DNA of 61,446 bases from a virus. Position numbers and translations under genes: made by a program. The stretch lies in the IMG/VR virus record IMGVR_UViG_3300036761_000480, positions 1 through 61,446 of that record; one strand, given 5' to 3'. The notes beneath the pieces were generated by a model that was given only the letters and a program-made list of their open reading frames with translations, did not search any database and had not been told where the DNA came from. The first letter of the stretch is position 1; each line of letters starts with the position of its first letter. This document shows positions 9,319-60,716 of the stretch, piece after piece.

Positions 9319-12300
9319 TTATCCAGTATTAACTGTCTCCCAAGTTCCGTTATTATAATCAGTTTGACTATCGGTTCTCAAGAATTCCTTTCTCTCAAGC
9401 GTCCAATTTGTTAATGGTGGTACTGTATTTGTTAATGTAAGTCTATCCCATTGTCTATATAATCTCCATTCTTTTAATGATGAATCATATATAAATCCAA
9501 GAGATGCTGGATTGAATAAATTATTTATCATACCATTTGATCCTGAAGCATCAGCTTTAATCCGTAGAAATACCGCAACTTCTCTTTGTGTTTCATGACT
9601 AGTACTTATACTTGGCCTCAATGCCCCAACAGGGTCAACATCTCTTACATGAGATATTCTATATGAAGATGGAACCGAATTTAATTTTGTATAGTTCATA
9701 TTATTAATTGAACTCTGTACCATTGCGTATGATTCATTACATGTAAGTCCAGTTGTCATTCCATTACTTGGTAATGGCATTGTGAAGTTGATAGTTTTAT
9801 TCCCCGCATTAAATGTCACCGTTGATCCAAGAGATATATAAAGATAATTTCTTATTACTGAGTCACCACAATTGTTAGGCGCGTATTCCCAACTTATAAA
9901 ATAATATGAATAATATGCTAAATCAGTTGGAGATGAAGCCAACCAATTAGCATAACCTGTAGATCCTGTAACTGATGCAATATTAGACACGAATTTATTA
10001 TAATCCACAGAGCTTGTAAATGATAATGTTACATCAGTAGTTCCGTTTGGCGTTACTGTCGCCGTATCTGATGGCGTTTCTAAGTTAGCACATTGATAAA
10101 TGCTTCCGTTCCATATCCATTGATTTCCTCCTGTGTCTTTCCATTTATTAGTTATATTTGCTGGATTTAATCCATAATAATTATTACCAAAAATCATATT
10201 ATAATAAACAAATTTATACATATCTGTATATTTCCATAAGAAATATTCGGAAGTTGGCTTATATCCTATAGCTGTTGATGTAAGTCCGCTAATTGTGTTA
10301 TACGAAACATTGAAATAACAATCCGGATCGCCAGAGTATGTCATATATGTTGTACCCGTTAATATTTTACTTATATTTGTATCTGGGAAAGTTAAATTAA
10401 TATCGGAGCTTGTCAAGCATTTCATTCTCATATCCCAGTTGGTGTCATTATTGAGCGGTTCGAGAGTTGATCCAGTTATCCCGATATTTAAATAACCACT
10501 CGCTGCTTCAAAGTTTCCAATGTCCGATATTCCAGTTAAGTCAGTTACATATTTAGCGCCATAAGCTCCATTCATATATGATGAATAGTTATATACTTTT
10601 GGATTAGTTGGGTAACTTGCGGGATATAGATTGGTTATTAAACTATTTGGAAGTCCGCTGGCTGATCTTGTACCGATAACAAAGTTATCAAGTAATATAC
10701 CTGATGGATAATTTGTACTAAAATACGATATTTGTAATTGGTCAGCAACATCATAAGCCGCGAATTCCCAAGCAAAATGGGTTGTTGAATCTAACAGTTC
10801 AAATGATATCGACCTTGATTTATCTTCACTTACATTAACAGTATTTCTATATATTAAACCAAATGGATAAACAGTATCGTTATTAAATACCGCTGAACAT
10901 GTGATTGGACTAATCGTTATTGGCGTTCCATTAACACATGTAAATAAATCGGGACTCCAACGAGTACTTCCAGTTACAGATGCAAAGTATGGGGTATATG
11001 TTAAACCATTTGATACAACATATCTAATAACAGGATAATATGTTCCCTGTGGGACAATTTCATTTGTAAATGGATGTTGTTGTTGTATGTTTGGATCACT
11101 TCCAACTCCCGTAATAAGCTCGGTTGTTCCAGTAATACTACCAGTTCTCCATTCAATTACAAAATCACCAATAGTACATCCATTGCCCGAAACTAATTTA
11201 TTTGATGATAAGAAATATCCACCTGTTTCACCTGAAAGTGATAAATTACATGTTGAACATATAGTGTATATTACTAATGGTGACGGCGTTGGTGATGGCG
11301 TTGGTGATGTAGTAGATTGTGGTGTAATACTCGGCGTTATGGATTGTGATACTCCAGGTACATTGGTAACATCAATAATTTCACCCTCCACGACGCATGG
11401 CGCCGATGGCGTTGGCGTCATTGATGGCGTCACTGATGGAGTTACCGATGGCGTTATACTTGGCGATATACTTGGTGTTATACTTGGCGTTATACTTGGC
11501 GTTATACTTGGCGTTATATTTGGCGTTTTCGACGGTGTTTTTGATACTGTTATGCTCGGTGTTGCACTCGGTGTTGCACTCGGTGTTGCACTCGGTGTTT
11601 TTGATACTGAAATACTTGGTGATATTGAAATACTTGGCGTTAAACTTGGCGTTAAACTTGGTGTTGCACTTGGTGTTTTTGATACCGTTATACTTGGCGT
11701 TACACTTATCGTATTACTTGGTGTTGCACTCGGTGTTTTTGATACCGTTATACTTGGTGTTATAGATGGCGTTATTGAAATACTTGGCGTTATTGATGGT
11801 GTTAAACTTGGCGTTATACTTGGAGTCGCGGTCATCGTCGGTGATATCGAAATACTTGGCGATATCGAAATACTTGGTGTTATGCTTGGTGTTATGCTTG
11901 GAGTTGCACTTGGAGTTTTACTTGGCGTTTTTGTCATCGTTGGTGACGATGTAACAGTTGGAGTTATTGAAATGCTTGGCGTTAGACTTGGCGTTTTACT
12001 TGGTGTTGCGGTCACCGTTGGCGACGATGTAATAGTCGGCGTTATTGTTATACTTGTTGTTATACTTGGTGTTAGACTTGGCGTTGCGCTTGGTGTTTTA
12101 CTTGGCGTTTTTGATACCGTTATACTTGGTGTTATAGATGGCGTTGATGTTATTGATGGCGTTGGTGATGGCGTTGCTGACGGCGTTGGCGTTGATGTTG
12201 GTGATGGCGTTGCTGATAATGATATACTTGGTGTTGGCGAAACATCTTCAATTATACCAGTATCACATACTGTCTCTCCAGTCCATCCATTAGGTCCACA

Positions 12301-15300
12301 AGATCTTATAAATAATTGATTTATTGGCGAAGATTCGGTTTGTCCATATCCTATAAAATATTGATGAAGAGTGTAGTCTATTGTATCAAATTTTTCTTCT
12401 GTATATCTTACTATAATATTGTCATAATTACCTGTCTCGCCATTAAATAAAATAATATTACCATTATCTGAACTTCCACTAGCATTTACTTGATAATATA
12501 TTTTTTTATAATTATCATCACTACAATAATTTAATGTCACACCAGTTACTTCGATTGGAAATCCATATTGATTAATCATTAAATCTCCAATGTATATATC
12601 TTCTGGGTATTTATATTCAAAAAGATATGGTACACTCTGTAATTGAATATTCATATTGGTATATACCAATATTTTACTTGTTGGTAAAACTTCAAATTCA
12701 TCATTAATAATATGTGATTTTACCGTACTAAAACATTCTTTATTTTCAACAGTAATAAAGTCATAATCAAATGCAAATTGATATCCATTAGTATTTGCAT
12801 TACTAAAGTCCTGACTAGATAAGTCTCCATAAGGTTTTAAGGAAAGAGATAATAATATATCACCAATTGAAATGTTTTCAATTGTTATCCCACTAATACT
12901 TCCTCCTGCTATTGCTGTAACAAGATCTTCCCATGTTGATGGAATTGATGGAGAACCAATAACTTTATAAACATCAGTTCCTTTTCTTAATCCATAATTA
13001 AAACTTGGTCTATATTCTACTATTGGATTTGAAGTAAATCCAGTATTAATACCGACTTCGACAACTACAAATTGTAATCCATCAACTTCTAATCTTTGCT
13101 CACAATTCGCGGCATCCGTAAATATTAAATGAATGAGATCACATTCACTAAAACCAGTTAGCATAAAGATACACGGTGCAACTTGTTGTATTCTTGGGTT
13201 AACATTTACTTCATCATCGCATTCCTGATGTACATAAACCGATCCCCTTCCCATTTCATCTCCAGTAGCTCCACTAACATAAAAATATAAATCGGCAAAT
13301 AATTCACATCTAGTATCGCCAGTATAAATTGGTGATGATGATTCCACATATACTTCTAAGGCGCAATCCTGTTTTGTTAAATTAAAAATTGGTGCAAAAT
13401 AATACTCAAATTCCGCATCACAATTCTCATCATAATAGTCATTTGGTGATACTGTAAATCTTACTTTTTCAATACCATCGATGTCGGTAAAATATTCTAC
13501 TGTTATAGTATAACCAGTTTCGCCAGAAATGGCATTTGCTATTAATGTATCTAAAGTACTTCTCCAAATAGTCTTCATATCTTCGACGGTATCACCGCCA
13601 TTAAATAATGACCATGTATTTCCCGAATATTCATATCCACAAACTAATGGAATGCTATCTGATGTTGCCGTTAAGGAAGTACAATTATTGGTTGGAGGAG
13701 TATATGCTGAAAATGGTTTTAAATTAGGCGTTTCGGCGCTATATAGATTACCATTGACAACTAATGATATTTGAAATGATATTCCTCCGAAAAATTGAAC
13801 GCCTCTAAAATTTTCTAACGAAACATCTTCCCCATTAATAGATCCACTACCAATAATTGTCTCAATATCTTCACGAATTACGGTTTCAAAATCTGGGTAA
13901 AGAATTTGGGTATATGTAGTTGGAAGACAAGGTTGAGGATATTGATATCTTGACCCATATCCTGGCCCATTTTCAATTAAATTTCCACCTAGCCATAATG
14001 TTGTTGCTGGCACAAATTGATCAATTATGCTAGTCCAATAAGGACTTAATCTATTTATAAAATCACATACCGCAATATAATTATAGGGTTTGAATTCATT
14101 ACTTCGATAATAAGCGTTATATACCTCCTCTATATCTATATAGTTTCTCTGATACCTCATAATATGTGAATTTGTAATGATGATACTTAACATTTCATCT
14201 AAAAATTCAGCAAATGTCCTATCTGTCTGAGGTGGTAATGTGTGAAAAGTTAACGATAAATTTCTTGATTTTCGATATATGTCATAATCTATTGCCCTAT
14301 CTGCAGCTAAAAACGCATTAATGTTTTTTCTATTTAGCGTTAATTTTGATGTATTTTCATCTATAACATTTTCAATTTTCTTATTATCAATTTTGCTTGA
14401 TAAACTATATCCATAATCTAATCCTGGAAGTTTTCGATATGCGTCAAAATAATCCTCACCATATGTAAATGGTTTAGACATTGTTTTAATGGTTTTTATC
14501 CTACCTGATAAATTAGAATTCGCGGCATCTAAAATATCGGGAGATCTATGGTCTAATAATTTTCTATACCAGCCTGCTCCTGTTTGAAAAAATAAACTAC
14601 CATCTGTTGTGATGATTTTTCGTGGTAATCCCGTAATTTCATCGACAGGATAATTGTCTCTACTTAAACTTGTTGATCCAGTTATTTGTGTTAAAGTATA
14701 TCCGGTTATTCCTGTATTGTATTCCGCCATATTAACCACTCTAATTCCTTGCATTGCTTCCCAAATATCATTTTCGATGGTTTTTGAAGGTAATACGGCA
14801 TCAACTATATAAACATATTCATCAAGCCTAATTAGAGGTTCTGGTGCGCCAATAAATTTTAAAAAGAATTCTATACCACCTCTAGTCCCTTTTGATTTAT
14901 ATAGATTAGCAAGATTGACTAATATTCTTCTATAAAATTCATATTCGGCTTCGATTAAATTAACTCCTGTTGACACACCGTTATATTGGGGATCGTGTCT
15001 TGTATATAAAGAATCTGCCAGACTTTTTTCATCGAATAGGCTAATGGTTGAAAGCCCAAGAGTTTCGGATAGGTTTTTTAATAATACATCGGGAACGTTA
15101 TTAATTCCATCATAACTTACATTTCGCATATAAGCGATGTTATCAATAAACACTTTTATTTTATCAAAACTTTGGCCATATATCTGAAATATGGATTCCA
15201 TCTTTTTTTCTTCAGTATCAAACTCATAAAGTTGTGGAGCGGTTAAAAATCTGATAATTAAATTGGCTTTATAATCATCGCTTTCGTCACCTAAAGAACT

Positions 15301-16245
15301 TAATTGACTAATATAATAATCATAATTAACCCCAGTTATTTGAATATTCCATCCATCTCGTGAAATTGGCCAATTAATATATACAGTAATTGTATCAACA
15401 TTATATCCTCCATTAGTTTCTCTTGGTACATTAAATCCAGCATTAAATTTAGGACTACTTTCTCTATTTAATAATACACTTTCTAAATCATCTAAATTAT
15501 CATAAAATTCTTCTACAACACCATCGTTCGGTCTTATTAGATAATTTTCGGTAAATCCAGTCGCGTTATCAAAACAATTACCATCAACCTTTAATGTAAT
15601 TTTATTGTCAACATCAGGCCCCTCATATTCTAATATACCAAATACACTACCACCAATATCAATTACATATTTTGTATATGATGAATAAAAATTTCTTATA
15701 GTGTTATCTGTAGTTGATATTACATTAGTTTGCGGTTCAATTAATATAACATCTAATGGATTAAATAATAACGAATATTGTACTTTAAATTCTGTGATGC
15801 CTAAATATGGATTATATACAATAGATTCGGCGCTTAAACTGTTTAATCCAACGGGTGATGTTGTATCTACCAGAATTGCTGCGGGATATTTTGCAATGAT
15901 ATTTGAAACTGAAACTCCAAGTCTTTGTTTTAACGAGCCATAGAGCGAACGATCAGCATTATTCTTATCATTATTAAATTTAATATCTTGTGATGTGCTA
16001 CTTGTGCTATCGGTATTAGTAGTAGTACTGTCTTCTTCTTTAATATCATCTAATGTGAGAAAATCCGAAAAGGGCTGTGTTATAAACTCCTTACTGTCTT
16101 TTTCGGGTATTATTCTATCAATAGCAAAGTTTTCGCCAGTCATTTGACTGGAGCCATCAGTAATTTGGTTACCAACCAGAAAATCACTAAATGTATCGGC
16201 CCCACTTGAGGCTTGACTAGGAACTTTGTATTTTACTACTGGCAT
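9319..16245 (-). CDS. Giant baseplate-to-fibre protein with P2 gpI-like region and long Thr-Pro-Ser linker
   Basis: 2308 residues, the largest gene here. The N-terminal ~700 residues look like a baseplate connector: residues about 432-465 ([18 protein letters not shown], then FFLKFIGAP) match the 'KGT' motif region of the P2 tail protein I family, which links baseplate wedge and fibre. The middle (about 820-1330) is not recognised. Residues about 1335-1655 are an uninterrupted TPS linker. The C-terminal ~650 residues are rich in T, S, N, G and aromatics, as in receptor-binding tips, without a recognised domain. Its start overlaps the stop of the upstream 305-aa gene by 1 nt (TAATG type), suggesting translational coupling. 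The acidic Ser/Thr-rich stretch at residues 55-95 may be disordered. Structural role fairly sure; exact position in the virion inferred. Confidence 0.82.
11280..12240 (-). repeat. Longest Thr-Pro-Ser coding repeat (about 320 codons)
   Basis: Tandem blocks encoding [18 protein letters not shown] and related units in the 2308-aa gene. Blocks such as gttttgataccgttatact recur with one or two differences. The opposite strand stays open for 410 codons over this stretch only because the repeat has no stop in that frame. Confidence 0.9.
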
Positions 16246-26401: not shown

Positions 26402-26560
26402 GTGAACTACCCTCTAACTAAAATTTATGGGCTTCATGAGTCATCACTCCCACTAATGTGGGCAGTTCGTCATGATTTTCTTGTCTATGTTCCACAGACA
26501 AATAATTTCTTAAAGCAAAATTCTTAATATTTATAGCGGCGTTAAAATCTCTATCATGTA
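26402..26560 (-). ncRNA. Predicted omega RNA (reRNA) region of tnpB
   Basis: In IS605 elements the guide RNA covers the end of tnpB and the right end, with the guide read from flanking DNA. Here the conserved end is GGGTAGTTCAC and the guide would be the following 16-20 nt (GTATCTTATGG...). The terminal hairpin next to the end is poorly paired (CCCATAA...TTAGAGGG). The 5' limit is a guess. Confidence 0.5.
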
Positions 26561-27581
26561 CAGTACCACAACCATTACATATCCATTCTCTGTCTTTCAA
26601 TTCGAGTTCTTTATTAATATTGCCACAAATATGACAAGTTTTACTTGATGGTTCGAATCTTCCAATTTGTAAAATATTTTTACCATACCATTCTGATTTA
26701 TATTTCAACATATCAACAAACATTCCCCATCCAACATCTGAAATTGATTGAGATAGGTTATGATTTTGTAACATACCCTTAATATTAAGATTTTCAGTGG
26801 CAACACTATCGTGGCTCTTGATTAGTTGCGTTGAAATTTTATTTAAATAATCTTTGCGTTGATTAGTAACATATTCATACAAAATATTTAATCTATGTTT
26901 TGTTCGTTTACCTTTATATTTTGAATATTTACTCTGAATATATTTTAATCTTGATTCTGATTTTTTAAAAAATTTGGGATTATCGAACCTCAATCCATCA
27001 GAAGTAACTAAAAATGATTTAATACCCAAATCAATTCCAATGGTATTATTAATGGTTATATTGGATTTAATCGGAGTTACTATATTATTTTCAACTAATA
27101 TCGACACAAAATATTTACCCGTCGGTGTTTTACTAATAGTGGCTTGTTTGATGATTCCTTTAAATACTCTATGTAATATAATTTTAATACCTTTTTTAAA
27201 TTTAGGAATGATCAATTTATTATTATCAAAATCCACAATAACATTTTGTGGTATGTTAAAAGATTGTCTTGCTGATTTCTTTTTAAAATTTGGGAAATCT
27301 GCTTGTCCCTTAAAAAATTTAGTAAAAGCGTTATCCAAATGCGTTATTGATTGTTGCAATGATTGTGAGTTAATTTCTTTAAGCCAAGCACATTCTTTTT
27401 TTAAATCAGGAAGTTGTTTCATTAAATCAAAACATCCTAAATTAACTTTGTTGCCGGCATATGCGGTTTGCTTCGTTTCTAAAGCGAGATTATATAAAAA
27501 TCTACAACTACCAATATGTTTGTTTATTAGTTCTTGTTGAGTCCTAGTCGGTTCGATTCGATATTTATACGATTTAATCAT
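26418..27581 (-). CDS. tnpB: TnpB, RNA-guided RuvC-type endonuclease of IS200/IS605
   Basis: 387 residues, normal TnpB length. The N-terminal helix-turn-helix/OrfB region starts MIKSYKYRIEPTRTQQELIN. The split RuvC active site appears complete: Asp184 in IGIDLGIK, Glu263 in VATENLNIKGM and the Asp of HDRDFNAAINI (343-352). A zinc ribbon lies between (Cys316, Cys319, Cys335, Cys338). TnpB proteins cut DNA guided by an omega RNA made from the 3' end of the gene and the element's right end, next to a short target-adjacent motif. The last codons (ENHDELPTLVGVMTHEAH) overlap that RNA region. The gene looks intact; whether it is expressed is unknown. The ATG lies 4 nt after a GATATTTATA word, so it may use a phage-like promoter. 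Confidence 0.95.
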   Translation of the reverse strand: MIKSYKYRIEPTRTQQELINKHIGSCRFLYNLALETKQTAYAGNKVNLGCFDLMKQLPDLKKECAWLKEINSQSLQQSITHLDNAFTKFFKGQADFPNFKKKSARQSFNIPQNVIVDFDNNKLIIPKFKKGIKIILHRVFKGIIKQATISKTPTGKYFVSILVENNIVTPIKSNITINNTIGIDLGIKSFLVTSDGLRFDNPKFFKKSESRLKYIQSKYSKYKGKRTKHRLNILYEYVTNQRKDYLNKISTQLIKSHDSVATENLNIKGMLQNHNLSQSISDVGWGMFVDMLKYKSEWYGKNILQIGRFEPSSKTCHICGNINKELELKDREWICNGCGTVHDRDFNAAINIKNFALRNYLSVEHRQENHDELPTLVGVMTHEAHKF

Positions 27582-32125: not shown

Positions 32126-32827
32126 CTACCCGCTATTTACCTCTATTTCTTCAACCTTATGCTTTTTTTGCTTAGATAATTCAGCAAGTCGGTGATTTTT
32201 TTCTTCTTGGGATAAATCGGATATTGTTGGACTCTTTACTTCCACAGTTCCTATCACACTGCCAAGTCCCACGCCTGGTGGAGGAGCCTCAACATGAATT
32301 GGTTCATCAAAATTATGATTAGGATGTATTTCGCCAGTAATTTCTTCCCTGATTTCTTCTTTTCTATGCTTCATTTCTTCTTTCTCTATTATAGATTTTT
32401 TATACACGTCTAAAATATGTTCTTTTTTCTGTATAGCTTTTTCTTCAGCATGGCCAAGAAGAGTATTTTGTGTATCAGTATCAATTTCGAGTAATTCGTT
32501 ATTAAATTTACAATTTCCAAAAACCACTCCATCTTTACCGATACGGCTTTTAAGTAATGTAACAGTTGCAAGATTATTTTCTTTCTGTTCAAGAGTTTTA
32601 GCAACTGAAATAACCACATGCCCGACTTGAGCTTTCTTAATATTACCGCCCATTTGATCAGCAGTAACGATTTCTGAAGACATTGATGAATTATGGGTAT
32701 ATATATCATTTGCATAAAACATTTCTGTATCTTCGACTGATATGTCAATAGTTTCTTCTTCACCAATTAACTCAATACTTATTATTTCATCCAATTTGAA
32801 ATCGTCTAAATTTAAATTATGCTTCAT
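32126..32827 (-). CDS. C-terminal half of gp41-like replicative helicase, with N-terminal C-intein
   Basis: 233 residues. Residues 1-46 are a C-intein (split Int-C): DEIISIELIGEEETIDISVE then DTEMFYANDIYTHN, the block F/G pattern with a terminal His-Asn, followed by Ser47 (+1). It closely resembles the C-intein of the gp41-1 split intein. Residues 47-120 continue the DnaB/gp41 RecA core (SSMSSEIVTADQMGG; VISVAKTLEQKENN; LLKSRIGKDGVVFGN). The final ~110 residues are charged, probably helical and specific to this phage. On its own the polypeptide lacks Walker A and cannot be a helicase; trans-splicing with the product of 34092-35420 should give a 539-residue enzyme (352 + 187). The start codon comes 1 nt after the stop of the homing endonuclease (TAACATG), suggesting coupled translation. 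Confidence 0.92.
   Translation of the reverse strand: MKHNLNLDDFKLDEIISIELIGEEETIDISVEDTEMFYANDIYTHNSSMSSEIVTADQMGGNIKKAQVGHVVISVAKTLEQKENNLATVTLLKSRIGKDGVVFGNCKFNNELLEIDTDTQNTLLGHAEEKAIQKKEHILDVYKKSIIEKEEMKHRKEEIREEITGEIHPNHNFDEPIHVEAPPPGVGLGSVIGTVEVKSPTISDLSQEEKNHRLAELSKQKKHKVEEIEVNSG
32690..32827 (-). other. C-intein (46 residues) of the split helicase intein
   Basis: Encodes MKHN...IYTHN. The AAT (Asn) codon is at 32690-32692 and the Ser+1 TCA codon at 32687-32689. The cleavage residues His-Asn and nucleophile Ser+1 are intact. About 46 residues is usual for naturally split gp41 C-inteins. Confidence 0.92.
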
Positions 32828-32828
32828 G

Positions 32829-34034
32829 TTAATTTTTTAAGAAATTAATACATTCATTTATTGTTTGTTCTTTATTTTTATGATATAAAATTTCATTGAT
32901 TCTTAGAATTTTATATCCTTTTAATTTTAAAAAATCATCTCTATTTTTATCAATTATTTTCTGCTTATTTGATGAATGCCAATACTCTCCATCAAATTCA
33001 ATTATTTTTTCATTATATTTAAAATCTACATTTATTATTGTTAAGTCATTTTTATAGGCATAAAAAACATATTCGTCATTTAATTCCGCAAAATAACAAT
33101 TTTCTTTATTTTCAAGACGTTCATATATATTCCAAAATAAATCTTGAGAAATTTTAGAATATTTAGTGCTAAAATAATTAATTTTCTTATTAATTAATTC
33201 TTGATATTTTATTATTCCATTGTCATTTCCATATTCTTTAATATAATATTCCTGTGATGATTTATACCTCAATTTGTCTCCCATACAATTATATCTTTTA
33301 TTTCCTTCTATTTCGCCATATCGTTCAATAAAAGAATTTAAACTTGTTTTACTCATACTTTCACAATACTCATTCCATAAAATTAATCCATTCTCTTTCC
33401 CATATGTCTCTAAATAATATTCAATTGATCTACGGTAACTTTGCTTTTCGTTTTTTATTATCCATCTTTTATACCCATCGTCAATTCCATATTTTTTCTG
33501 GTATTCTACTAATGTTAATCCATTACGATATGGTTTAATTTTTTTTCTCTTTTTCATCGTTTCAATTTTTTGATTCAATGTTTTTTCCCATTTTATTTTG
33601 CCCTCTTTTTCACCATATCTCTCAATCATATATTTTATCCCATAACTTTTTACTTTTTCATTTCTTTCTTTCCATTTTTTAATTCCTTCGTCCTCGCCAT
33701 AAAGCTCGATAAATTTTTTTTTATCCATTCTCGTTTTAGATATGTGACTTTTTCTTTTCTCATCCCATTTATCACCATAACGTATTTTACATGAATATTC
33801 ACTAACAACATCGTTTTTTATAGTAGTTGTAATGATTTTTAATCTATCTAACCAATTATCCTCAACTCCATAAAGAATAAAATCTCTGATGTTAACCAGT
33901 CTATTTCCAATATTATCAGTTTTATAATATTTTATAATTTTATAAACTTCGTTCATCTGATCATTTGTAATTTTATTTCTAATATCTCTGATCTTTTTAT
34001 AATTTAAAAAAACGTCTAATGATATTTTCCCCAT
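32829..34034 (-). CDS. Free-standing homing endonuclease (EDxHD/Vsr-like) between the helicase halves
   Basis: 401 residues. The C-terminal ~60 residues have the Vsr/PD-(D/E)xK-type core: KIIEFDGEYWHSS (Glu346, Asp348, His353), then IIDKNRDDFLKLKGYKILRIN (Asp362/Asp366/Asp367). This fits the EDxHD family first described in split-intein 'fractured genes'. The N-terminal ~290 residues hold about seven repeats of a Y-G-x-(D/E)-x-G-x-x-x-W/Y motif (ELYGEDEGIKKW, ERYGEKEGKIKW, KYGIDDGYKRW, TYGKENGLILW, RYGEIEGNKRY, EYGNDNGIIKY), probably DNA-recognition elements. The gene is very AT- and Lys/Ile/Tyr-rich, like the other mobile endonucleases here. It is presumed to spread the split insertion by cutting helicase genes without it; this is inferred from known cases. 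Confidence 0.88.
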   Translation of the reverse strand: MGKISLDVFLNYKKIRDIRNKITNDQMNEVYKIIKYYKTDNIGNRLVNIRDFILYGVEDNWLDRLKIITTTIKNDVVSEYSCKIRYGDKWDEKRKSHISKTRMDKKKFIELYGEDEGIKKWKERNEKVKSYGIKYMIERYGEKEGKIKWEKTLNQKIETMKKRKKIKPYRNGLTLVEYQKKYGIDDGYKRWIIKNEKQSYRRSIEYYLETYGKENGLILWNEYCESMSKTSLNSFIERYGEIEGNKRYNCMGDKLRYKSSQEYYIKEYGNDNGIIKYQELINKKINYFSTKYSKISQDLFWNIYERLENKENCYFAELNDEYVFYAYKNDLTIINVDFKYNEKIIEFDGEYWHSSNKQKIIDKNRDDFLKLKGYKILRINEILYHKNKEQTINECINFLKN

Positions 34035-34045
34035 AATATTTTTAT

Positions 34046-34055
34046 TATAAATATA
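34046..34055 (-). promoter_or_regulatory. Candidate promoter element TATATTTATA before the homing endonuclease
   Basis: The minus strand reads TATATTTATA 11 nt before the endonuclease ATG, in the 57-nt gap after the N-terminal helicase half. It may give the endonuclease and C-terminal half their own transcript. Confidence 0.35.
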
Positions 34056-34091
34056 CGCTTAAAATAAAAAATTAACATCAACACAAATATT

Positions 34092-35420
34092 TTATTTTTC
34101 CAACAATAAAACATCTCCAATAGATAATCCGCTTTCTATTGATTTTAATTGTTTATATTTCGTTGGGAAAAAATGTTTAGATGATACATTAATTTCCTTG
34201 CCTGACTTTGTTTTAATTTTATATACTGGTTGTTTCTCAATGGGAAATATGTAACTTATTTTTTTATATCCATTATGCGTTTTAATTAAATCACCTTTCA
34301 TTACATTTTTAATTTTAATTTGTCCTTTATCTATTATATCAACTAATGTATCAATCCCGACACATCTATTTCCTTGGGTTGCTGTCCATACAGCAATATT
34401 AAATTCATCGGTCATTGATTCGAGGCTTCTCATAATTGCCCCTTCACCTTTCCATTCTTCACCATTCATTGTTCCTTCGCTAGTAATACAATCAACATAA
34501 TCTAAAACCAATAGATCAATTTTAAGCCCCTCAGATTCTAACTTCCTAATTTTATTTCTAATATCATTAATAGAAAGAGTTCCAGATGGGTATTTAACAA
34601 GTTTAAGAAAATTTTTCTTCTGACTTTGCATATAGTCAATCATTCCAGCAATGTCATGCTTATGCTTAGGTTGTTCATCAGGTGTTATATGTGTCCAAAC
34701 TGCATAATGTTTTCTACGAATATCTCTCATATTGTCTTCAAAAAATATCTGTAAAACATTCGCTCCTGTATTATATGCTGAATTTGCAACTTTACTTAAC
34801 CATGTCGTTTTTCCAATACCTGTGGGCGAGAGTAAAATAGCTAATTCACCTTTTGCAATACCACCTTTAAGAAGATTATCAATACCCACAATTCCTGTTG
34901 GGAATGGTATTCTTGAATCTTCTTCCAGTGATTCTAACACACCTTCACTAATATCAACGACTTCATGTGTTGTGGTGCCAATTTGTAGAGCTTTTTGAAT
35001 TTTATCTTCAATTTTAGTATAATTTTCAAAATCTCCATTATCCATAATCTCCTCTGACTCTTTCAGTGCCCTTTTCAATACTTGCTGTCTGCAAAAATTG
35101 AGAGCTGTGAGCTTCACATACCCATTATCTTCTACTTCTTTGTCTCTGATAGCATATAATGTATCAAGATTTATTTTACTTGATGCACTAGTATTTTCTG
35201 CCAGTATTTTTTGTGATAAAGTCTCGTAATTGGGAATAGTTTTAAATGTCGTATAAAGCTCTTTGATGTTCTCCATAATATATTTGAAGTATGGACCATC
35301 GAAGTACTTACTATCGATTACATCAACTATTGTTACAGCGAACTTTTTATCCTCAATTATTGCTTTTAGTAGCGACTGTTGAAATGTCGTCCCCAAGTAT
35401 CCAAAATTCTTTTCGTTCAT
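34092..35420 (-). CDS. N-terminal half of gp41-like replicative helicase, with C-terminal N-intein
   Basis: 442 residues. Residues 1-150 form the helicase N-terminal helical domain; 165-352 begin the RecA-type core: Walker A SPTGIGKTT at 198-206, Walker B-like LLVLDYVDC near 305-313, and the sensor TATQGNR ending at 352. Residue 353 is Cys and starts a 90-residue N-intein (CVGIDTLVDIIDKG, block B GKEINVSSKHFFPT with its conserved His, ending SIGDVLLLEK). The insertion point, after TQGNR, is the same conserved motif occupied by gp41-1 type inteins. Without splicing the ATPase core is truncated before its last strands. It lies downstream of the exonuclease and 148-aa genes, in a gp41 position of a T4-like replication operon. 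Confidence 0.93.
   Translation of the reverse strand: MNEKNFGYLGTTFQQSLLKAIIEDKKFAVTIVDVIDSKYFDGPYFKYIMENIKELYTTFKTIPNYETLSQKILAENTSASSKINLDTLYAIRDKEVEDNGYVKLTALNFCRQQVLKRALKESEEIMDNGDFENYTKIEDKIQKALQIGTTTHEVVDISEGVLESLEEDSRIPFPTGIVGIDNLLKGGIAKGELAILLSPTGIGKTTWLSKVANSAYNTGANVLQIFFEDNMRDIRRKHYAVWTHITPDEQPKHKHDIAGMIDYMQSQKKNFLKLVKYPSGTLSINDIRNKIRKLESEGLKIDLLVLDYVDCITSEGTMNGEEWKGEGAIMRSLESMTDEFNIAVWTATQGNRCVGIDTLVDIIDKGQIKIKNVMKGDLIKTHNGYKKISYIFPIEKQPVYKIKTKSGKEINVSSKHFFPTKYKQLKSIESGLSIGDVLLLEK
34095..34364 (-). other. N-intein (90 residues) of the split helicase intein
   Basis: The Cys1 TGT codon is at 34362-34364 and the stop codon at 34092-34094. Blocks A (CVGIDTLVDI) and B (INVSSKHFFPT) are visible. 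No endonuclease domain is embedded; the endonuclease is the separate next gene. Confidence 0.92.
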
Positions 35421-37434: not shown

Positions 37435-38100
37435 TCAAATGATTTTAGTAGATTTATGAATATTATCTAACCACCATAAAGGTTGAAGATTTGTGTAATG
37501 ACATAATTTATATAATTCATCTTCCGTTTTTGCTGAATCTAATGGCATCCTATGATCAATATGCCAACCAAATTGCCCGTGATTTTCCCAATTCATTCCA
37601 TCAGTAAATTGTTTTTCTAAATATTCCTTTAAATCTGATGGAGACATTCCAACAATTTCGAATGTCCTATTTCTTTTCGTTATATTAAGTTTTTTTAGAT
37701 ATTTATACATTCTGCCTCGTACATTATTAGTAATTTTATAAACTGGATCATCTTTTTGTCTTTCTTTTCTTCTCTCTCTTTTTCTTGGTTTATAATTTTT
37801 ACGATATTCTTTTCTTTTTTCTGGATTATTTTTATAAAAATTTTTATGATTTTCATTAATTTTTTCAGGATTTTCTAATCGATATTTTTTATACCTATTA
37901 TAAACCCATTCAGGATGTTTATGACACCAATCTCGTGTAAGTTTTAAACATTTTTGTGAGTTATTTTTTCTATATTTTTTACTTCTTTCATTATTACATG
38001 TACTACAAACACAAGAATATCCAGATTTACTCCTATTATTTTTAACAAAGTCATCTAATTCTTTTTCTAATCCACATTTACTGCAAATTTTTTGTAACAT
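37435..38100 (-). CDS. HNH homing endonuclease downstream of uvsX
   Basis: About 221 residues from the ATG at 38100 (MLQKICSKCGLEKEL). An upstream in-frame ATG at 38121 would overlap the end of uvsX by 20 nt and is less likely. The N-terminus has a four-Cys zinc ribbon (CSKCGLEKEL...CVCSTCNNER). A long basic helical linker follows, and the C-terminus has the HNH core WHIDHRMPLDSAKTEDELY then HYTNLQPLWWLDNIHKS. Free-standing HNH genes like this are common next to phage replication and nucleotide genes, where they spread by cutting uninserted relatives. The Lys/Arg/Tyr- and AT-rich composition matches the other mobile endonucleases here. Confidence 0.88.
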   Translation of the reverse strand: MLQKICSKCGLEKELDDFVKNNRSKSGYSCVCSTCNNERSKKYRKNNSQKCLKLTRDWCHKHPEWVYNRYKKYRLENPEKINENHKNFYKNNPEKRKEYRKNYKPRKRERRKERQKDDPVYKITNNVRGRMYKYLKKLNITKRNRTFEIVGMSPSDLKEYLEKQFTDGMNWENHGQFGWHIDHRMPLDSAKTEDELYKLCHYTNLQPLWWLDNIHKSTKII

Positions 38101-38101
38101 C

Positions 38102-39115
38102 CTATTCGGTATCTTCCTCACGTATAATATTTGCGTTTATTATTTCTGATATAGAAACACCTAATTTCTCACTAATATATTCCCCAGCAATTTTTTTATA
38201 TTCTTCGATAGATTTTTTTTCTTCGGCCTCGTTCTTTGCCTTCATAAAATCATGAGCTGTTATTAATATTTTACCGTCTTCATAACCAAGTCCAGTGAGA
38301 TGATTTTTCATTACACTAATTTTAGTTCTCGTTGCTATTTTAATTTTTCTACCATCTTTCGTGATGGATATCTTAGTTATGCCTGCTCCTTTCTGATTTC
38401 CGAATAAAAATACAAACGTTGAATTTAACCATACTGCATTTCCCCCTTTAGCCATAATTCTTGGCTGTCCAAATGGCCCATCTGGTAATTCAACCCATGC
38501 CTGATTGGACATAATCATTGTGTTCGTATATTTTCTATCTGACCTACGTGATCCAGTAATTCTCTGGTTTAGTCCCATTCCTATTTTATCCGATAATACC
38601 GATGCGGTCGCTTGTTTTCCACCCTTGCCGTCAAATGTCATTTTACATGGAACAGAACCCACAGAATCCCATAAAAAACATAAATCATAATCTATCTCTC
38701 CCTTATCTTGAGCATCAAGTAAGCTAGTAATATAATCTGTAATTTGTTCAACATAATCAAAATGATTATTAAAAAGAAAAAATCCGTCCCAATTAAAACT
38801 TCCATCTTCTTTAACCACCTTTTCACATTGAAATCCTAACAGTTTTGCATGTTCAAATGTCCATTTTTGTTCTGTAATAAGAAAAACAGGTAATATATTT
38901 TTTCTCTGTGCGTCTATTGCCGTTTTAATTAGAGCAACGGTTTTTCCTGTATCACTATGTCCTAATAACATATTTAAATGCCCCATAGCGGGGCCTGGAA
39001 TGCCGCAAGCATCCAAAAAAGCGTCCCCCAAATCAAAATATCTGTCAGGCTTAAATGATGCCTCTTCTGAATATTTCTTTTTTATTGCTGAAAAATCTTG
39101 TTTTTTAATTGCCAT
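38102..39115 (-). CDS. uvsX: UvsX/RecA-like recombinase
   Basis: 337 residues. Walker A GHSDTGKT at 52-59, Walker B in YDLCFLWDSVGS (143-154), followed by the conserved NQRITGSRR / NTMIMSNQAWVELP region. T4 UvsX-type recombinases form filaments on single-stranded DNA to drive strand exchange and recombination-dependent replication, working with gp32. It is directly downstream of gp32, separated by a strong hairpin, and directly upstream of an HNH gene that starts at its stop codon. The C-terminal helical tail is charged (EEKKSIEEYKKIAGEYISEK), ending in acidic residues, as usual. Confidence 0.92.
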   Translation of the reverse strand: MAIKKQDFSAIKKKYSEEASFKPDRYFDLGDAFLDACGIPGPAMGHLNMLLGHSDTGKTVALIKTAIDAQRKNILPVFLITEQKWTFEHAKLLGFQCEKVVKEDGSFNWDGFFLFNNHFDYVEQITDYITSLLDAQDKGEIDYDLCFLWDSVGSVPCKMTFDGKGGKQATASVLSDKIGMGLNQRITGSRRSDRKYTNTMIMSNQAWVELPDGPFGQPRIMAKGGNAVWLNSTFVFLFGNQKGAGITKISITKDGRKIKIATRTKISVMKNHLTGLGYEDGKILITAHDFMKAKNEAEEKKSIEEYKKIAGEYISEKLGVSISEIINANIIREEDTE

Positions 39116-55460: not shown

Positions 55461-56348
55461 CTACAATAATTTTAATTTTAAATCGGATATTATCCATTCT
55501 GGCCTTTCATTAATATCTTTTTCCCAATATCGTAATAACTCTATGTTTTTATTTTTACATATTTCATTTTTAACTGCATCATTATTTACAGTTAATATTT
55601 GTGTTTGATATTTTGGAAAGTTATGAGTCGAATTTGGATTACAATGATAAAAATCTCCATCAACTTCAATTAGTATGTTTTTTTCTGGAATATAAAAGTC
55701 AAAAAACTTTTTTTCAAACTCATATTGAAATTCGTTTTTAACTCCAATAAGTTTTAATATATTTTCGAATTTTCTTTCAAGTTTTGTTTTCTTTTTTTTA
55801 CCATATCTTTTTAACCATTTAATTCGTTTCTCTCTCAGATTTTTTACAATAGACGGATCATTTTTATACCTCACTTTTTGCGTATTTGAACAATTAATTT
55901 TAGATTCTTCTGTTTTTGGAACGCCAGTTAGACTATTTGATATTTTTTTACCTCTTTCTTTGTTATTTCTTAATTTATCCTTTATTCCTTCTATTTTTTG
56001 ACGAGTTTCTTCATCATCTTTCTCCCACCATCCTACATATTTTCCAGCTTTCCAATTCTTTTTTTGAGTTTCGATTGCTTTTTGATGCGTTTCTGGGTTT
56101 TTTTGAAAATTATTTTTACCTGGAACTCTATTATGATGTGATTGTATAAATCTACGAAATCCCTTTCCTGTTGAAATAAATGGAGCATCTTTCCCACATC
56201 CACATTGACACTTTGGCGTTATTCCATTCAAAATATAATTAACATAAATTAAATTATTGCTTAATTTATGTTTTGATGATGAATGCCTTAATAATCCTAA
56301 AAAAGAAGTAAATTCTTTTTGACAAACACTACAAATAAAAATTTCCAT
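55461..56348 (-). CDS. Homing endonuclease (EDxHD/Vsr-like) between tail tube and chaperone genes
   Basis: 295 residues. The N-terminus is a C2H2-type finger (FICSVCQKEFTSFLGLLRHSSSKHK) followed by a CQCGCGK cluster. The middle is a basic NUMOD-like region (KSTHNRVPGKNNF; KKISNSLTGVPKTEESK). The C-terminal core has FFDFYIPEKNILIEVDGDFY with the Glu-x-Asp-Gly motif and His (FYH) near residues 213-236, then NNDAVKNEICKNKNIELLRYWEKDI. This is the Vsr/EDxHD fold also seen in the helicase-associated endonuclease. It is a free-standing gene inserted between gp19 and the gp26-like gene. Very AT-rich. No host function expected. Confidence 0.85.
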   Translation of the reverse strand: MEIFICSVCQKEFTSFLGLLRHSSSKHKLSNNLIYVNYILNGITPKCQCGCGKDAPFISTGKGFRRFIQSHHNRVPGKNNFQKNPETHQKAIETQKKNWKAGKYVGWWEKDDEETRQKIEGIKDKLRNNKERGKKISNSLTGVPKTEESKINCSNTQKVRYKNDPSIVKNLREKRIKWLKRYGKKKKTKLERKFENILKLIGVKNEFQYEFEKKFFDFYIPEKNILIEVDGDFYHCNPNSTHNFPKYQTQILTVNNDAVKNEICKNKNIELLRYWEKDINERPEWIISDLKLKLL

Positions 56349-56948: not shown

Positions 56949-56972
56949 TATATTTATATATTGATAAATATA
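56949..56972. promoter_or_regulatory. Divergent promoter region: inverted pair of TATATTTAT words
   Basis: TATATTTAT (56949-56957) and its exact reverse complement ATAAATATA (56964-56972) are separated by 6 nt. The plus-strand word lies 14 nt before the ATG of the plus-strand endonuclease; the minus-strand word lies 23 nt before the gp19 ATG. Confidence 0.45.
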
Positions 56973-58534
56973 TGACTATGGAAAAAAGTAAAAAAGAATT
57001 AAAAATTTTTTTATTAGAGAATAATAAAAGTGGATATAAAACAAAAGAAAAATATATTAATACTAATTTTTCAATATTTTTTTCAAATTTAAAATCTTTT
57101 ATTGTAAAAAATAAATTAGAAAGAGTTCAATTTAAAGAACAATTATTTTCATATCTACATGATATAAAAAAAATTCCACAATGTCCAATATGTAGAAAAC
57201 CATTAATTTTTAAAAAATCATTTAAGGAAGGCTACGGAACATATTGTTCTGTTAATTGTGCTAACAAATCAGAAAAACATATTAATAATATTAAATGGAC
57301 AAATATCAAAAAATATGGGGGAGTTTCACCTGCTAATTCTCCTGATATAAGAAAAAAAATGTCAGATACTAATTTTAAAAATTATGGAGTCTTAAATTTT
57401 TTTGAGAAAAAAGATGTTATACAAAAAAAAATAAATGAGAAATATGGAAACCCAATTATAACAAAAACTAATCATTTTAAAAAAATAATGAAAGAAAAAT
57501 ACGAAAAAAAATATGAAAATGAAAAAATAATAAAAAATGATAGTGATATTATATATTATTGTAAAACTTGTGGAGAATCTTCAACTCATGAATATAATTC
57601 ATTTAACTATAGACAAAGAAATAATATTTCACTATGCAAAATATGCGTTCCGCCATATCAATCTATGATTGAAAAAGAGCTGGAAAATTTTTTAGTTGAA
57701 AATGAATATGATTTTAAAAGGCATGACAGAATTACAATTACTCCTAAAGAAATTGATTTTTTTATAACAGATAAAAAAATTGGAATAGAATTAAATGGAT
57801 TATACTATCATAGTGAAAAATTCATACCAGATAAAAATTACCATAGAAATAAATGGATATCTTCTCAAGAAGAAGGAATTCATTTATTTCAAATATGGGA
57901 AGATGAATGGAAATTTAAAAAAGAAATTGTTCAGAATATAATAAAAAACAGAATATCTGGAACTAATAACAAAATATGGGGAAGGAAATGTGAAATAAAA
58001 ATAATTGATAATAATACCTATAGATTTTTTGTCGAAAAATATCATATACAAGGATACGCCCCAGCAAAAATTAGGATAGGATTATTCTTTAAAAATGAAC
58101 TGATACAAATAATGTCATTTTCGGGCAATAGAAAATCAATGGGTAGTACAAAAAAAGAAGGAGAATATGAAATGATAAGATTATGTACAAAATTAGGAAT
58201 AAATGTAATTGGTGGATCTGAAAAAATACTATCTTATTTTGAAAAAACGTTTAAACCAATTAAAATTACTAGTTATTGTGATATTCGATATTTTACAGGA
58301 AAAACATATTATAAAATGGGATTTAACCTTAAAGAAATAACAAAACCAAATTATTTCTATTTAAAGTCTAACGAAGTTAAAAGGCATCAACGATTTAACT
58401 TCAGAAAAGATAAGTTAGTTAAAATGGGATTTTCGAAATTTAAGACAGAACATGAAATAATGAAAGAACTAGGATATTTAAGAATTTGGGATTGTGGTAA
58501 TAAAAAATTTATTAAAACTTACGAAAACATTTGA
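56972..58534 (+). CDS. Plus-strand homing endonuclease with Vsr-like core and GNAT-like C-terminal region
   Basis: 520 residues, the only convincing plus-strand gene. Residues about 70-110 form a zinc ribbon (PQCPICRKPLIFKKSF, YCSVNCANK); a second Cys cluster (YYCKTCGES, CKICVPPYQ) is near 195-230. The nuclease-like core has EIDFFITDKKIGIELNGLYY then HSEKFIPDKNYHRNKW and QIWEDEW (about 255-305). The C-terminal ~190 residues (IRIGLFFKNELIQIMSFSG; EYEMIRLCTKLGINVIGGSE; ITSYCDIRYFTGKTYYKMGF) resemble a GNAT/Mom-like fold, and RIWDCGNKKF ends it. It is a clear paralogue of the 594-aa gene at 58842-60626. An alternative ATG is two codons in. It is inserted between sheath and tube genes. Confidence 0.85.
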   Translation: MTMEKSKKELKIFLLENNKSGYKTKEKYINTNFSIFFSNLKSFIVKNKLERVQFKEQLFSYLHDIKKIPQCPICRKPLIFKKSFKEGYGTYCSVNCANKSEKHINNIKWTNIKKYGGVSPANSPDIRKKMSDTNFKNYGVLNFFEKKDVIQKKINEKYGNPIITKTNHFKKIMKEKYEKKYENEKIIKNDSDIIYYCKTCGESSTHEYNSFNYRQRNNISLCKICVPPYQSMIEKELENFLVENEYDFKRHDRITITPKEIDFFITDKKIGIELNGLYYHSEKFIPDKNYHRNKWISSQEEGIHLFQIWEDEWKFKKEIVQNIIKNRISGTNNKIWGRKCEIKIIDNNTYRFFVEKYHIQGYAPAKIRIGLFFKNELIQIMSFSGNRKSMGSTKKEGEYEMIRLCTKLGINVIGGSEKILSYFEKTFKPIKITSYCDIRYFTGKTYYKMGFNLKEITKPNYFYLKSNEVKRHQRFNFRKDKLVKMGFSKFKTEHEIMKELGYLRIWDCGNKKFIKTYENI

Positions 58535-58841: not shown

Positions 58842-60626
58842 TTATAATATCATTTCAAATTTCATTGTTCCACAATCCCAAATTCTATCGAATCCTCTTT
58901 CTTGCATTATTTCCCATTCTGTTTTATCTTTAGAAAATCCTTCTTTTACTAACTTATCTTTTCTAAATGTAAACCTATGAAATCTATGAAGAAAATCTTT
59001 TGTACTTACATACCAGTAATTGGGATCAGATTGATGAATGAATTTAAATCCACATTTATAATATATTGTTTCTTCAGGAATAATACCAGACCATCTTGAA
59101 TCAGCATATGTAATAATTTTAAATGGTTGATACTCTTTTATAAAATATTTTAGTAATCGTGAAAATCCACCAATAACATTTGTATCTAATTTACTCGCAA
59201 ACCTAAGGAGTTCGTATTCATTATTCATTGAGGTATTTCCTAATGATTTTCTTTTCATGCCAAAGGTCATAACGCTGACTAATTCATTGTTAAAAAACAA
59301 TCCTGTTCTAATTTTGTCAACTAAATCTCCTTGTAAATGATTCTTTTCTAAAAATATTTTTGATTCCGATTTAGATATTTCTTTTATTATACATTTTCGA
59401 GCGAAAATTTTATTTTCGGTTATGTTAAGGATGTTTTTAATTCTGGAAAAAACAATATTAGGGGATTTTTTAATTTCATCTTCAAAAATATGAATTAATT
59501 TTATTCCTATAACATTTAATTTTTTTGTTTTGTCGATATGATAATTTTTATCTTTTTTTCCATATATTTCAGAATGATAATAATTACCATTTATTTCAAA
59601 ACCAATATTATATGACGGCAAAACATAATCAACTTCTTTTCTATTTAAAAGTTTTTTATCATTTTTTAAATAATTTATATTGTTATCATCAAAAATGGAT
59701 TCCATGAAAATGTTTAAAGAATTATCTGAGGTTATTGGATAGCATTTTCTACATATTATATCATATTCTCGAAATACTTGTGTATGAGTAAATTCATTTC
59801 CACATTTTTTACATTTAATTGTTGCGTACTTGTCATCAACATAATCAATAAATATAAATCCACGATCTTCAATTCTTTTTATAACGGAATTATACCTTTG
59901 TTTTATAACTTTTTCTTTATACTCATCAGAAGAAACATAAAGTCCATCAAATAATTCTTTTTGTTTATTTATTGCTTTATCCTGATTTGATTTAATCTGT
60001 AATGGAAATTCAACTCCATAATGATCAAAATGTGTTTTTTTAGATTTATTTTGAAATTCTTCCAATTTTAAATGATGACCTCCATATCTTTCGTTTAAAG
60101 TTTCATTAAATTTATCTCTATTATTATAATTGGCGTCTCCATATTTAATAAATTTAGTTTCGTTTCTTTTTTTTATAATTTCTTTTTGTTGTTCTTCAGT
60201 TATTTTTGAAATTGAATCAAAAAATTTTTTTCTTATTTCAGGAACTTCCATATGATTTTTAGTACCATATCTTTTAATTTTAGTCTGGTCTGATTTGGTT
60301 TTAAAATCATCTGTTTGGAAATAATAAAATCCATTATTTTTTAATTTAGACGATTCGATTGATTTTTTACATCTTTCTTGGGAATTTTTTTTATTCCATA
60401 TTAATCTACATTCATCAGAACAAATTTTATTTTGTTGTTTTTTTCTAATTTCAAATTCTTTCTCACAATTTAAACATTTTCTTTTTTCATACAAATCAAC
60501 TTGTTTCGGTTTGCCCTTAATTCCAGCAGATACATAACAAGTTTGATTACAATATTTTTTATTTCTCTGTTTAAAGGGTATTGTAAATTCTTTTTTACAA
60601 TGTTCGCAAATTTTTATTATATTCAT
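58842..60626 (-). CDS. Homing endonuclease with tandem zinc ribbons, Vsr-like core and GNAT-like C-terminus
   Basis: 594 residues from the ATG at 60626 (MNIIKICEHCKKEFTIPF), chosen because it begins right at the first zinc ribbon and has an AAAGAG leader; the frame stays open upstream to an ATG at 60713, but those 29 residues run through non-coding-looking sequence. Two N-terminal ribbons (CEHCKKEF...YCNQTC; CLNCEKEF...CSDEC) and a third (CKKCGNEF...CRKC) are seen. The nuclease-like core reads EVDYVLPSYNIGFEINGNYY then HSEIYGKKDKNYHIDK. The C-terminus (IRTGLFFNNELVSVMTFGMK; LDTNVIGGFSRLLKYFIKEY; YYKCGFKF; RIWDCGTMKF) is paralogous to the plus-strand gene. Inserted just after the sheath gene. 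Confidence 0.85.
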   Translation of the reverse strand: MNIIKICEHCKKEFTIPFKQRNKKYCNQTCYVSAGIKGKPKQVDLYEKRKCLNCEKEFEIRKKQQNKICSDECRLIWNKKNSQERCKKSIESSKLKNNGFYYFQTDDFKTKSDQTKIKRYGTKNHMEVPEIRKKFFDSISKITEEQQKEIIKKRNETKFIKYGDANYNNRDKFNETLNERYGGHHLKLEEFQNKSKKTHFDHYGVEFPLQIKSNQDKAINKQKELFDGLYVSSDEYKEKVIKQRYNSVIKRIEDRGFIFIDYVDDKYATIKCKKCGNEFTHTQVFREYDIICRKCYPITSDNSLNIFMESIFDDNNINYLKNDKKLLNRKEVDYVLPSYNIGFEINGNYYHSEIYGKKDKNYHIDKTKKLNVIGIKLIHIFEDEIKKSPNIVFSRIKNILNITENKIFARKCIIKEISKSESKIFLEKNHLQGDLVDKIRTGLFFNNELVSVMTFGMKRKSLGNTSMNNEYELLRFASKLDTNVIGGFSRLLKYFIKEYQPFKIITYADSRWSGIIPEETIYYKCGFKFIHQSDPNYWYVSTKDFLHRFHRFTFRKDKLVKEGFSKDKTEWEIMQERGFDRIWDCGTMKFEMIL

Positions 60627-60637
60627 AATTCTCTTTT

Positions 60638-60647
60638 TATAAATATA
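60638..60647 (-). promoter_or_regulatory. Candidate promoter element TATATTTATA before the 594-aa endonuclease
   Basis: The minus strand reads TATATTTATA, then AAAAGAGAATT and the ATG at 60626. Spacing of 11 nt matches that before the helicase-associated endonuclease. Confidence 0.35.
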
Positions 60648-60690
60648 AGGAAAAATATTAACATAATCAACAAGAACTGTGGAAATAAAA

Positions 60691-60716
60691 AACTTGGAAG
60701 AAATCTCTTCCAAGTT
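60691..60716 (-). terminator. Rho-independent terminator after the tail sheath gene
   Basis: Perfect 11-bp stem AACTTGGAAGA/TCTTCCAAGTT with a 4-nt loop, followed on the minus strand by TTTTATTT. It lies about 30 nt after the sheath stop codon and separates the sheath from the inserted endonuclease. Confidence 0.88.

What the first reader, a model, noticed from the sequence alone, without database searches (positions are those of the whole stretch)
32126..35420. Replicative helicase gene broken in two by a naturally split intein with a homing endonuclease gene between the halves
Seen: the 442-aa product has the N-terminal helicase domain and Walker A, then from Cys353 a 90-residue N-intein. 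The next gene is a 401-aa endonuclease with an E-x-D-G...H...D core. The third gene starts with a 46-residue C-intein ending His-Asn, followed by Ser and the remaining helicase core. All catalytic splice residues (Cys1, block B His, penultimate His, Asn, Ser+1) are present. Known: this arrangement defines the 'fractured genes' with gp41 split inteins and EDxHD endonucleases found in marine metagenomes (Dassa and colleagues, 2009). The exact sequences here differ from gp41-1 as recalled, so this may be a new orthologue in a Bacteroidota phage. The endonuclease has an unusual set of about seven YGxxEGxxxW repeats.
Basis: partly seen in the sequence, partly recalled or inferred. Interest (0 to 1): 0.9.

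Follow-up and report, generated by a model that had tools for sequence, protein, structure and literature searches.

The report
Phage helicase split by mobile intein
An uncultured phage's DNA-unwinding enzyme is encoded as two separate genes that should be welded back together as proteins, with a DNA-cutting enzyme gene in between that spreads the whole insertion; the arrangement is a known one, but here it comes with the scar of its arrival and with relatives at every stage of its life cycle.

Summary
Confirmed. On the minus strand the DnaB-type helicase gene is broken after Arg352. The N-half ends in a 90-residue IntN, a 401-aa endonuclease gene follows, and the C-half begins with a 46-residue IntC. 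All splice residues are intact; the predicted product is 539 aa, the length of the intact relative L017. Three other metagenome contigs carry the same locus at 99.9-100% identity, so it is not an assembly error. The endonuclease has the EDxHD/Vsr fold (Z 11.5 to I-Bth0305I) plus six ~28-residue helical repeats. This is a new member of the known 'fractured gene' kind. It is not at the gp41-1 site: the junction is R|S, three residues upstream of gp41-1's SGY|SSS.

New here: (i) all 54 distinct relatives of the intein examined occupy exactly this site, as intact fractured genes, with decayed endonuclease, with none, or as continuous mini-inteins; (ii) residue +1 is Glu/Asp in 73 of 83 intein-free helicases but Ser in 53 of 54 occupied ones, and the window allele carries 8 private substitutions in 13 nt at the junction (p=0.0002), a co-conversion scar of a recent arrival; (iii) relatives L032, L228 and L229 have helicases fractured twice. 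Trans-splicing and DNA cleavage were not tested.

The parts
34365..35420 (-). N-terminal 352 residues of the DnaB-type replicative helicase (N-extein; Walker A GIGKT; ends ...TATQGNR)
   Evidence: 87.5% identical to intact helicase L017
34095..34364 (-). IntN: 90-residue N-half of the split intein (Cys1, block B His64)
34035..34091 (-). 57-nt AT-rich gap between the IntN stop codon and the endonuclease start codon
32829..34034 (-). EDxHD (Vsr-fold) homing endonuclease, 401 aa: helical repeat region (six YGxxxGxxxW-type modules) and C-terminal nuclease domain (about residues 292-401)
32690..32827 (-). IntC: 46-residue C-half of the split intein, ending ...YTHN; its start codon lies 1 nt after the endonuclease stop
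32126..32689 (-). C-terminal 187 residues of the helicase (C-extein, Ser+1) with stop codon
34365..34371 (-). Upstream part of the junction scar: end of the N-extein, with private substitutions at -7, -3 and -1
32684..32689 (-). Downstream part of the junction scar: first two C-extein codons TCA TCA (Ser-Ser) in place of GAA/GAG AGT (Glu-Ser) of the nearest intein-free relatives

Best explanation
A mobile split-intein cassette (IntN + EDxHD endonuclease gene + IntC, about 1.7 kb) sits at the conserved R|S point of a phage DnaB-type helicase (the conserved Q-x-N-R motif of the ATPase core). The three genes are probably co-transcribed. The two helicase pieces are made separately, their intein halves associate and trans-splice (Cys1, block B His, penultimate His, Asn, Ser+1), and the product is a 539-residue helicase. 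In mixed infection the endonuclease would cut intein-free helicase alleles near the junction; repair copies the cassette in, together with a few base pairs of flanking extein including the Ser+1 codon. Shown from sequence: anatomy, intact catalytic residues, nuclease fold (modelled), empty and occupied alleles, recent acquisition, junction scar. Inferred: splicing, cleavage, cleavage position, co-transcription.
For: Anatomy and splice residues. Closest solved relative gp41-1. Nuclease: PDB best match I-Bth0305I (prob 1.00; Z 11.5, 2.3 A over 91 residues) and Vsr (Z 11.0); close viral models are the Aes123 Vsr endonuclease and a Campylobacter CP21 protein, both from phages with published split-PolB inteins (PMC11923092, PMC12707363). 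Glu321, Asp337, Glu346, His353 and Asp362 are invariant in 28 homologues and the endonuclease evolves under purifying selection in relatives (dN/dS about 0.2-0.3). Real in nature: three other contigs. Mobile: the window helicase groups with three intein-free ones (SH-aLRT 100), while its IntC is 85-87% identical to that of L025, whose helicase halves are only 39-42% identical. Scar: 8 private nt in 13 at the junction, scan p=0.0002, absent from the three relatives; the +2 Ser codon switches AGT to TCA, the codon box that most occupied alleles use there.
Against: No expression, splicing or cleavage data exist. Individual Pfam intein scores are below the curated cut-off. The donor allele was not found (closest inteins about 72% identical), so co-conversion is inferred from the scar. 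Part of the scar (the two bases of Glu to Ser) would be selected anyway for splicing.
Confidence: 0.9

Rival explanations
1. The helicase is simply split into two subunits that associate non-covalently, and the intein halves are relics that no longer splice.
For: Split phage enzymes that work without splicing exist (Aeh1 NrdA, phage 25 gp43; PMC2988022).
Against: Every splice residue is intact here and in nearly all of the 54 relatives; the intein halves are conserved over large extein divergence with low dN/dS; the cut lies in a highly conserved motif of the helicase core.
Confidence: 0.06
2. The intein splices, but the endonuclease is dead or non-mobile, so the element is inherited vertically.
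For: Relatives with decayed or missing endonuclease exist (L229, L135, L139, L081, L090).
Against: The window endonuclease is full length with all active-site residues; the nearest helicases are intein-free and the junction carries an acquisition scar.
Confidence: 0.08
3. Assembly chimera or frameshift artefact joining different genomes.
For: The window is a metagenomic contig.
Against: Same locus in three other contigs, one of which differs at 9 nt over 6.6 kb; reading frames open; same gene order in many divergent phages.
Confidence: 0.01
4. A group I or II intron, not an intein, removes the insert at RNA level.
For: EDxHD endonucleases are also found in introns (I-Bth0305I; PMC3943268).
Against: No Rfam match in the window; the ORF extensions on both sides are coding and match intein domains; in L067 and relatives the two halves form one continuous mini-intein.
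Confidence: 0.01

Closest known systems
'Fractured genes' with gp41 split inteins and EDxHD endonucleases (Dassa et al. 2009, doi 10.1093/nar/gkp095; paper not held, known from citations and memory)
   Same: Host gene broken between two intein halves with a free EDxHD endonuclease gene between them; same type of host gene.
   Different: New sequence; R|S insertion point; junction scar, recent acquisition and neighbouring empty alleles shown here.
gp41-1 split intein (PDB 6qaz)
   Same: Closest solved structure for both halves (8e-21 and 3e-12 by profile); Cys1, Ser+1.
   Different: Not allelic: gp41-1 exteins SGY/SSS lie three residues downstream of R|S; its IntC is 37 residues, here 46 (PMC11766414 table).
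gp41-8 split intein
   Same: IntN/IntC sizes (94/50), Cys1 and Ser+1 are close (PMC11766414); the NR|S insertion point matches what I recall.
   Different: Its sequence was not found in any collection here; identity and exact site could not be measured.
Aeromonas phage Aes508/Aes123 PolB split intein with Vsr-like endonuclease
   Same: Same layout (polymerase-IntN / Vsr endonuclease / IntC-polymerase) and homologous endonuclease, 25% identity over residues 174-396; best viral structural match.
   Different: Different host gene and intein; that intein is cysteine-less (PMC11923092).
I-Bth0305I, the EDxHD intron endonuclease (PDB 3r3p)
   Same: Same nuclease fold, Z 11.5.
   Different: Intron-borne; only its catalytic domain is solved, so the YGxxxGxxxW repeat array could not be compared.

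Membership tests
Fractured gene with split intein | Host gene interrupted between separately encoded IntN and IntC with full splice residues | tested here: met
Fractured gene with split intein | Free-standing homing endonuclease ORF between the halves | tested here: met
Fractured gene with split intein | Uninterrupted host-gene alleles in close relatives, exact at the junction | tested here: met
   L017, L004, L005; 96 intein-free loci
Fractured gene with split intein | Protein trans-splicing | not testable with these tools
   needs co-expression
EDxHD / Vsr-like homing endonuclease | Nuclease fold of I-Bth0305I / Vsr | tested here: met
   Z 11.5 and 11.0 on a model with pLDDT 89
EDxHD / Vsr-like homing endonuclease | Conserved E, D, H, D active-site residues | tested here: met
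   E321, D337, E346, H353, D362 invariant in 28 sequences
EDxHD / Vsr-like homing endonuclease | Cleaves intein-free target DNA | not testable with these tools
   needs purified enzyme
gp41-1 intein allele | Insertion at the same helicase position (SGY|SSS) | tested here: not met
   alignment with Synechococcus phage B23 (NR|SGASS...) puts that point 3 residues downstream (exteins from PMC6823396)
gp41-8 intein allele | Same insertion position and sequence similarity | not testable with these tools
   gp41-8 sequence not found in the collections searched

The most novel reading that the evidence does not exclude
The endonuclease's array of ~28-residue helical YGxxxGxxxW modules (3 to 7 in homologues, gained and lost as whole units) is a modular DNA reader in which repeat number and sequence set the length and specificity of the homing site, an unrecognised counterpart of other repeat-based DNA-binding arrays.
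Probability: 0.25. Interest if true: 0.75.

Novelty: new member of a known kind. Interest (0 to 1): 0.5.

Why it matters
It places a natural split intein in a defined phage lineage with its empty target alleles, so homing by a split-intein/EDxHD cassette becomes directly testable. A Ser+1 codon arriving with the cassette would explain how an intein that needs a nucleophile can invade a site that normally encodes an acidic residue. The relatives give a large new set of natural split inteins (and continuous and doubly fractured forms) for protein ligation and for asking how inteins become split and whether they revert.

Tried and rejected
Relatives of the intein in cellular genomes: pattern matches but none confirmed. 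Deposited phages: no isolate carries this intein, best match 31%; no megablast match to 14.8 kb around it; the C-half finds nothing in deposited phages. Dassa 2009 and the I-Bth0305I paper are not held. A gp41-8 sequence could not be obtained. Rfam: no RNA family in the window, so no sign of an intron. Promoter and terminator scans gave about what shuffles give. A literature search for a natural protein with two split inteins in three fragments returned nothing, which is weak evidence because most journals are not held. The PDB searches matched only the nuclease domain, so the fold of the repeat region was not properly tested.

Full report
WHAT IS THERE. The window is an IMG/VR virus record of 61,446 bases. 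On the minus strand, in transcription order, lie a 442-aa ORF (35420-34092), a 401-aa ORF (34034-32829) and a 233-aa ORF (32827-32126). Residues 13-352 of the first are a DnaB-type helicase (PHROG 19, E=7.8e-48). From Cys353 a 90-residue IntN follows. The third ORF starts 1 nt after the endonuclease stop with a 46-residue IntC ending YTHN, then Ser+1 and the rest of the helicase (187 residues). Joined at the junction the exteins give 539 residues, the length of the uninterrupted relative L017.

IT IS NOT AN ARTEFACT. Three other contigs carry the locus: 100% over 11,408 and 5,412 nt, and 99.86% (9 mismatches) over 6,593 nt.

THE INTEIN. IntN and IntC profiles built from the window and ten relatives hit gp41-1 first in the PDB (8e-21, 2.9e-12). 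Invariant residues include Cys1, the block B His64 and the final Asn; the penultimate His is kept in all but one. gp41-1's native exteins are SGY/SSS (PMC6823396). Alignment with the cyanophage B23 helicase (QFNRSGASST) places that point three residues after the R|S junction used here, so the two are not allelic.

THE ENDONUCLEASE. Sequence matches are MTES_1575, DUF559 and weakly I-Bth0305I. An AlphaFold2 model (28 sequences, pLDDT 89, pTM 0.39) shows a chain of helical pairs and a C-terminal nuclease domain; the domain matches I-Bth0305I (Z 11.5, 2.3 A over 91 residues) and Vsr (Z 11.0). The best viral match is the Aes123 Vsr endonuclease, whose homologue in Aes508 sits between the halves of a split-intein DNA polymerase. 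Six YGxxxGxxxW-type repeats, mostly 28-29 residues apart, precede the nuclease; homologues have three to seven. That they bind DNA is inference. dN/dS of about 0.2-0.3 in relatives indicates that the enzyme is maintained.

THE SITE AND ITS ALLELES. In IMG/VR the intein family has at least 153 matches. The 54 distinct pairs examined all lie at exactly the same helicase position, +1 being Ser in 53 and Cys in one. States: endonuclease present; remnant (L039, L135, L139); split without endonuclease (L081, L088, L090, L095, L103 and others); and halves fused into one mini-intein (L067, L068, L078, L080, L091, L096). The fused forms lie among fractured alleles in nearly identical helicases, so split and continuous forms have interconverted within one phage group. 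The direction is not proven, although the outer branches are all split.

RECENT ARRIVAL AND SCAR. The window helicase groups with three intein-free helicases (SH-aLRT 100). Its IntC is 85-87% identical to that of L025, whose helicase halves are only 39-42% identical. Of 83 distinct intein-free alleles 73 have Glu or Asp at +1; the three nearest read TQGNR/ES. The window allele has eight private substitutions within 13 nt at the junction (-7 to +5). This is the densest such cluster in the gene (permutation p=0.0002 for a cluster anywhere); the same scan is unremarkable for the three relatives. It includes AGT to TCA at +2, a synonymous serine box switch that point mutation rarely makes; 40 of 53 other occupied alleles have C at that codon's second position. 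The simplest reading is co-conversion of a short flank during homing, as described for T4 introns (PMC2988022). An intein-free allele, L021, shows a similar dip against its sister L019 (64% in the 36 nt at the junction; 92-94% in the windows beside it) and has Ser+1: possibly the footprint of a lost intein.

MECHANISM. Shown: anatomy, residues, modelled fold, alleles, scar. Inferred: co-transcription, trans-splicing, cleavage of empty alleles, repair copying the cassette.

DOUBLY FRACTURED RELATIVES. In L032, L228 and L229 the helicase is in three pieces: a second, atypically split intein (IntN about 65 residues, IntC about 136) breaks the Walker A loop, and the middle piece carries IntC of one intein in front and IntN of the other behind. 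The window phage has only the R|S insertion.

KNOWN OR NEW. The allele spectrum, the +1 rule and the doubly fractured relatives are the parts I did not find described, with the caveat that the literature available here is incomplete.

Noticed in passing
L032:1901-6196 (also L123, L227); L228:1607-6345; L229:2533-5347: Replicative helicase fractured twice: piece 1 ends in an atypical IntN (about 65 aa) at the Walker A loop, the middle piece carries IntC (about 136 aa) at its front and the R|S-site IntN at its back, piece 3 starts with IntC. L032 and L228 keep an EDxHD-like endonuclease at both gaps; L229 has none at the first gap and only frameshifted remnants at the second.
   Followed up: partly
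L230-L245; L031:3600-4104: Helicases fractured only at the Walker A loop by that atypical split intein, with or without an EDxHD-like endonuclease; in L031 the same intein is continuous.
   Followed up: partly
L067:5001-5387, L068, L078, L080, L091, L096: The window's intein family as continuous mini-inteins, among fractured alleles of nearly identical helicases: natural interconversion of split and continuous forms.
   Followed up: partly
L021:1271-1918: Intein-free helicase with Ser+1 and a local identity dip at the junction against its sister L019: possible footprint of a lost intein.
   Followed up: partly
L012:4500-5556, L028:2778-3855, L039:3480-4262: Continuous inteins at the Walker A loop that begin with Glu or Ala instead of Cys/Ser (class 3-like), with LAGLIDADG-like middles in L012 and L028 (classification by eye).
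   Followed up: no
L091:3590-3592; L031:6955-6957: L091 mini-intein has Tyr in place of Cys1, and L031 IntC has Lys in place of the penultimate His: possibly dead or unusual inteins, or sequencing errors.
   Followed up: no
window 26418-27581 (-): TnpB-like gene (OrfB_IS605 plus Cas12f1-like TNB domain) next to a baseplate gene.
   Followed up: no
window 55461-56348 (-), 56972-58534 (+), 58842-60713 (-): Three further homing-endonuclease-like genes, two with weak MTES_1575/DUF559 matches (the EDxHD-type fold), around the tail tube and tail sheath genes.
   Followed up: partly
window 37435-38121 (-): Endonuclease VII-like gene with a GTG start, overlapping the end of the UvsX-like gene by 20 nt.
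   Followed up: no
window 11087-12319 (+): 410-aa ORF antisense to the 2308-aa ORF at 9319-16245 (-); probably a chance open frame.
   Followed up: no
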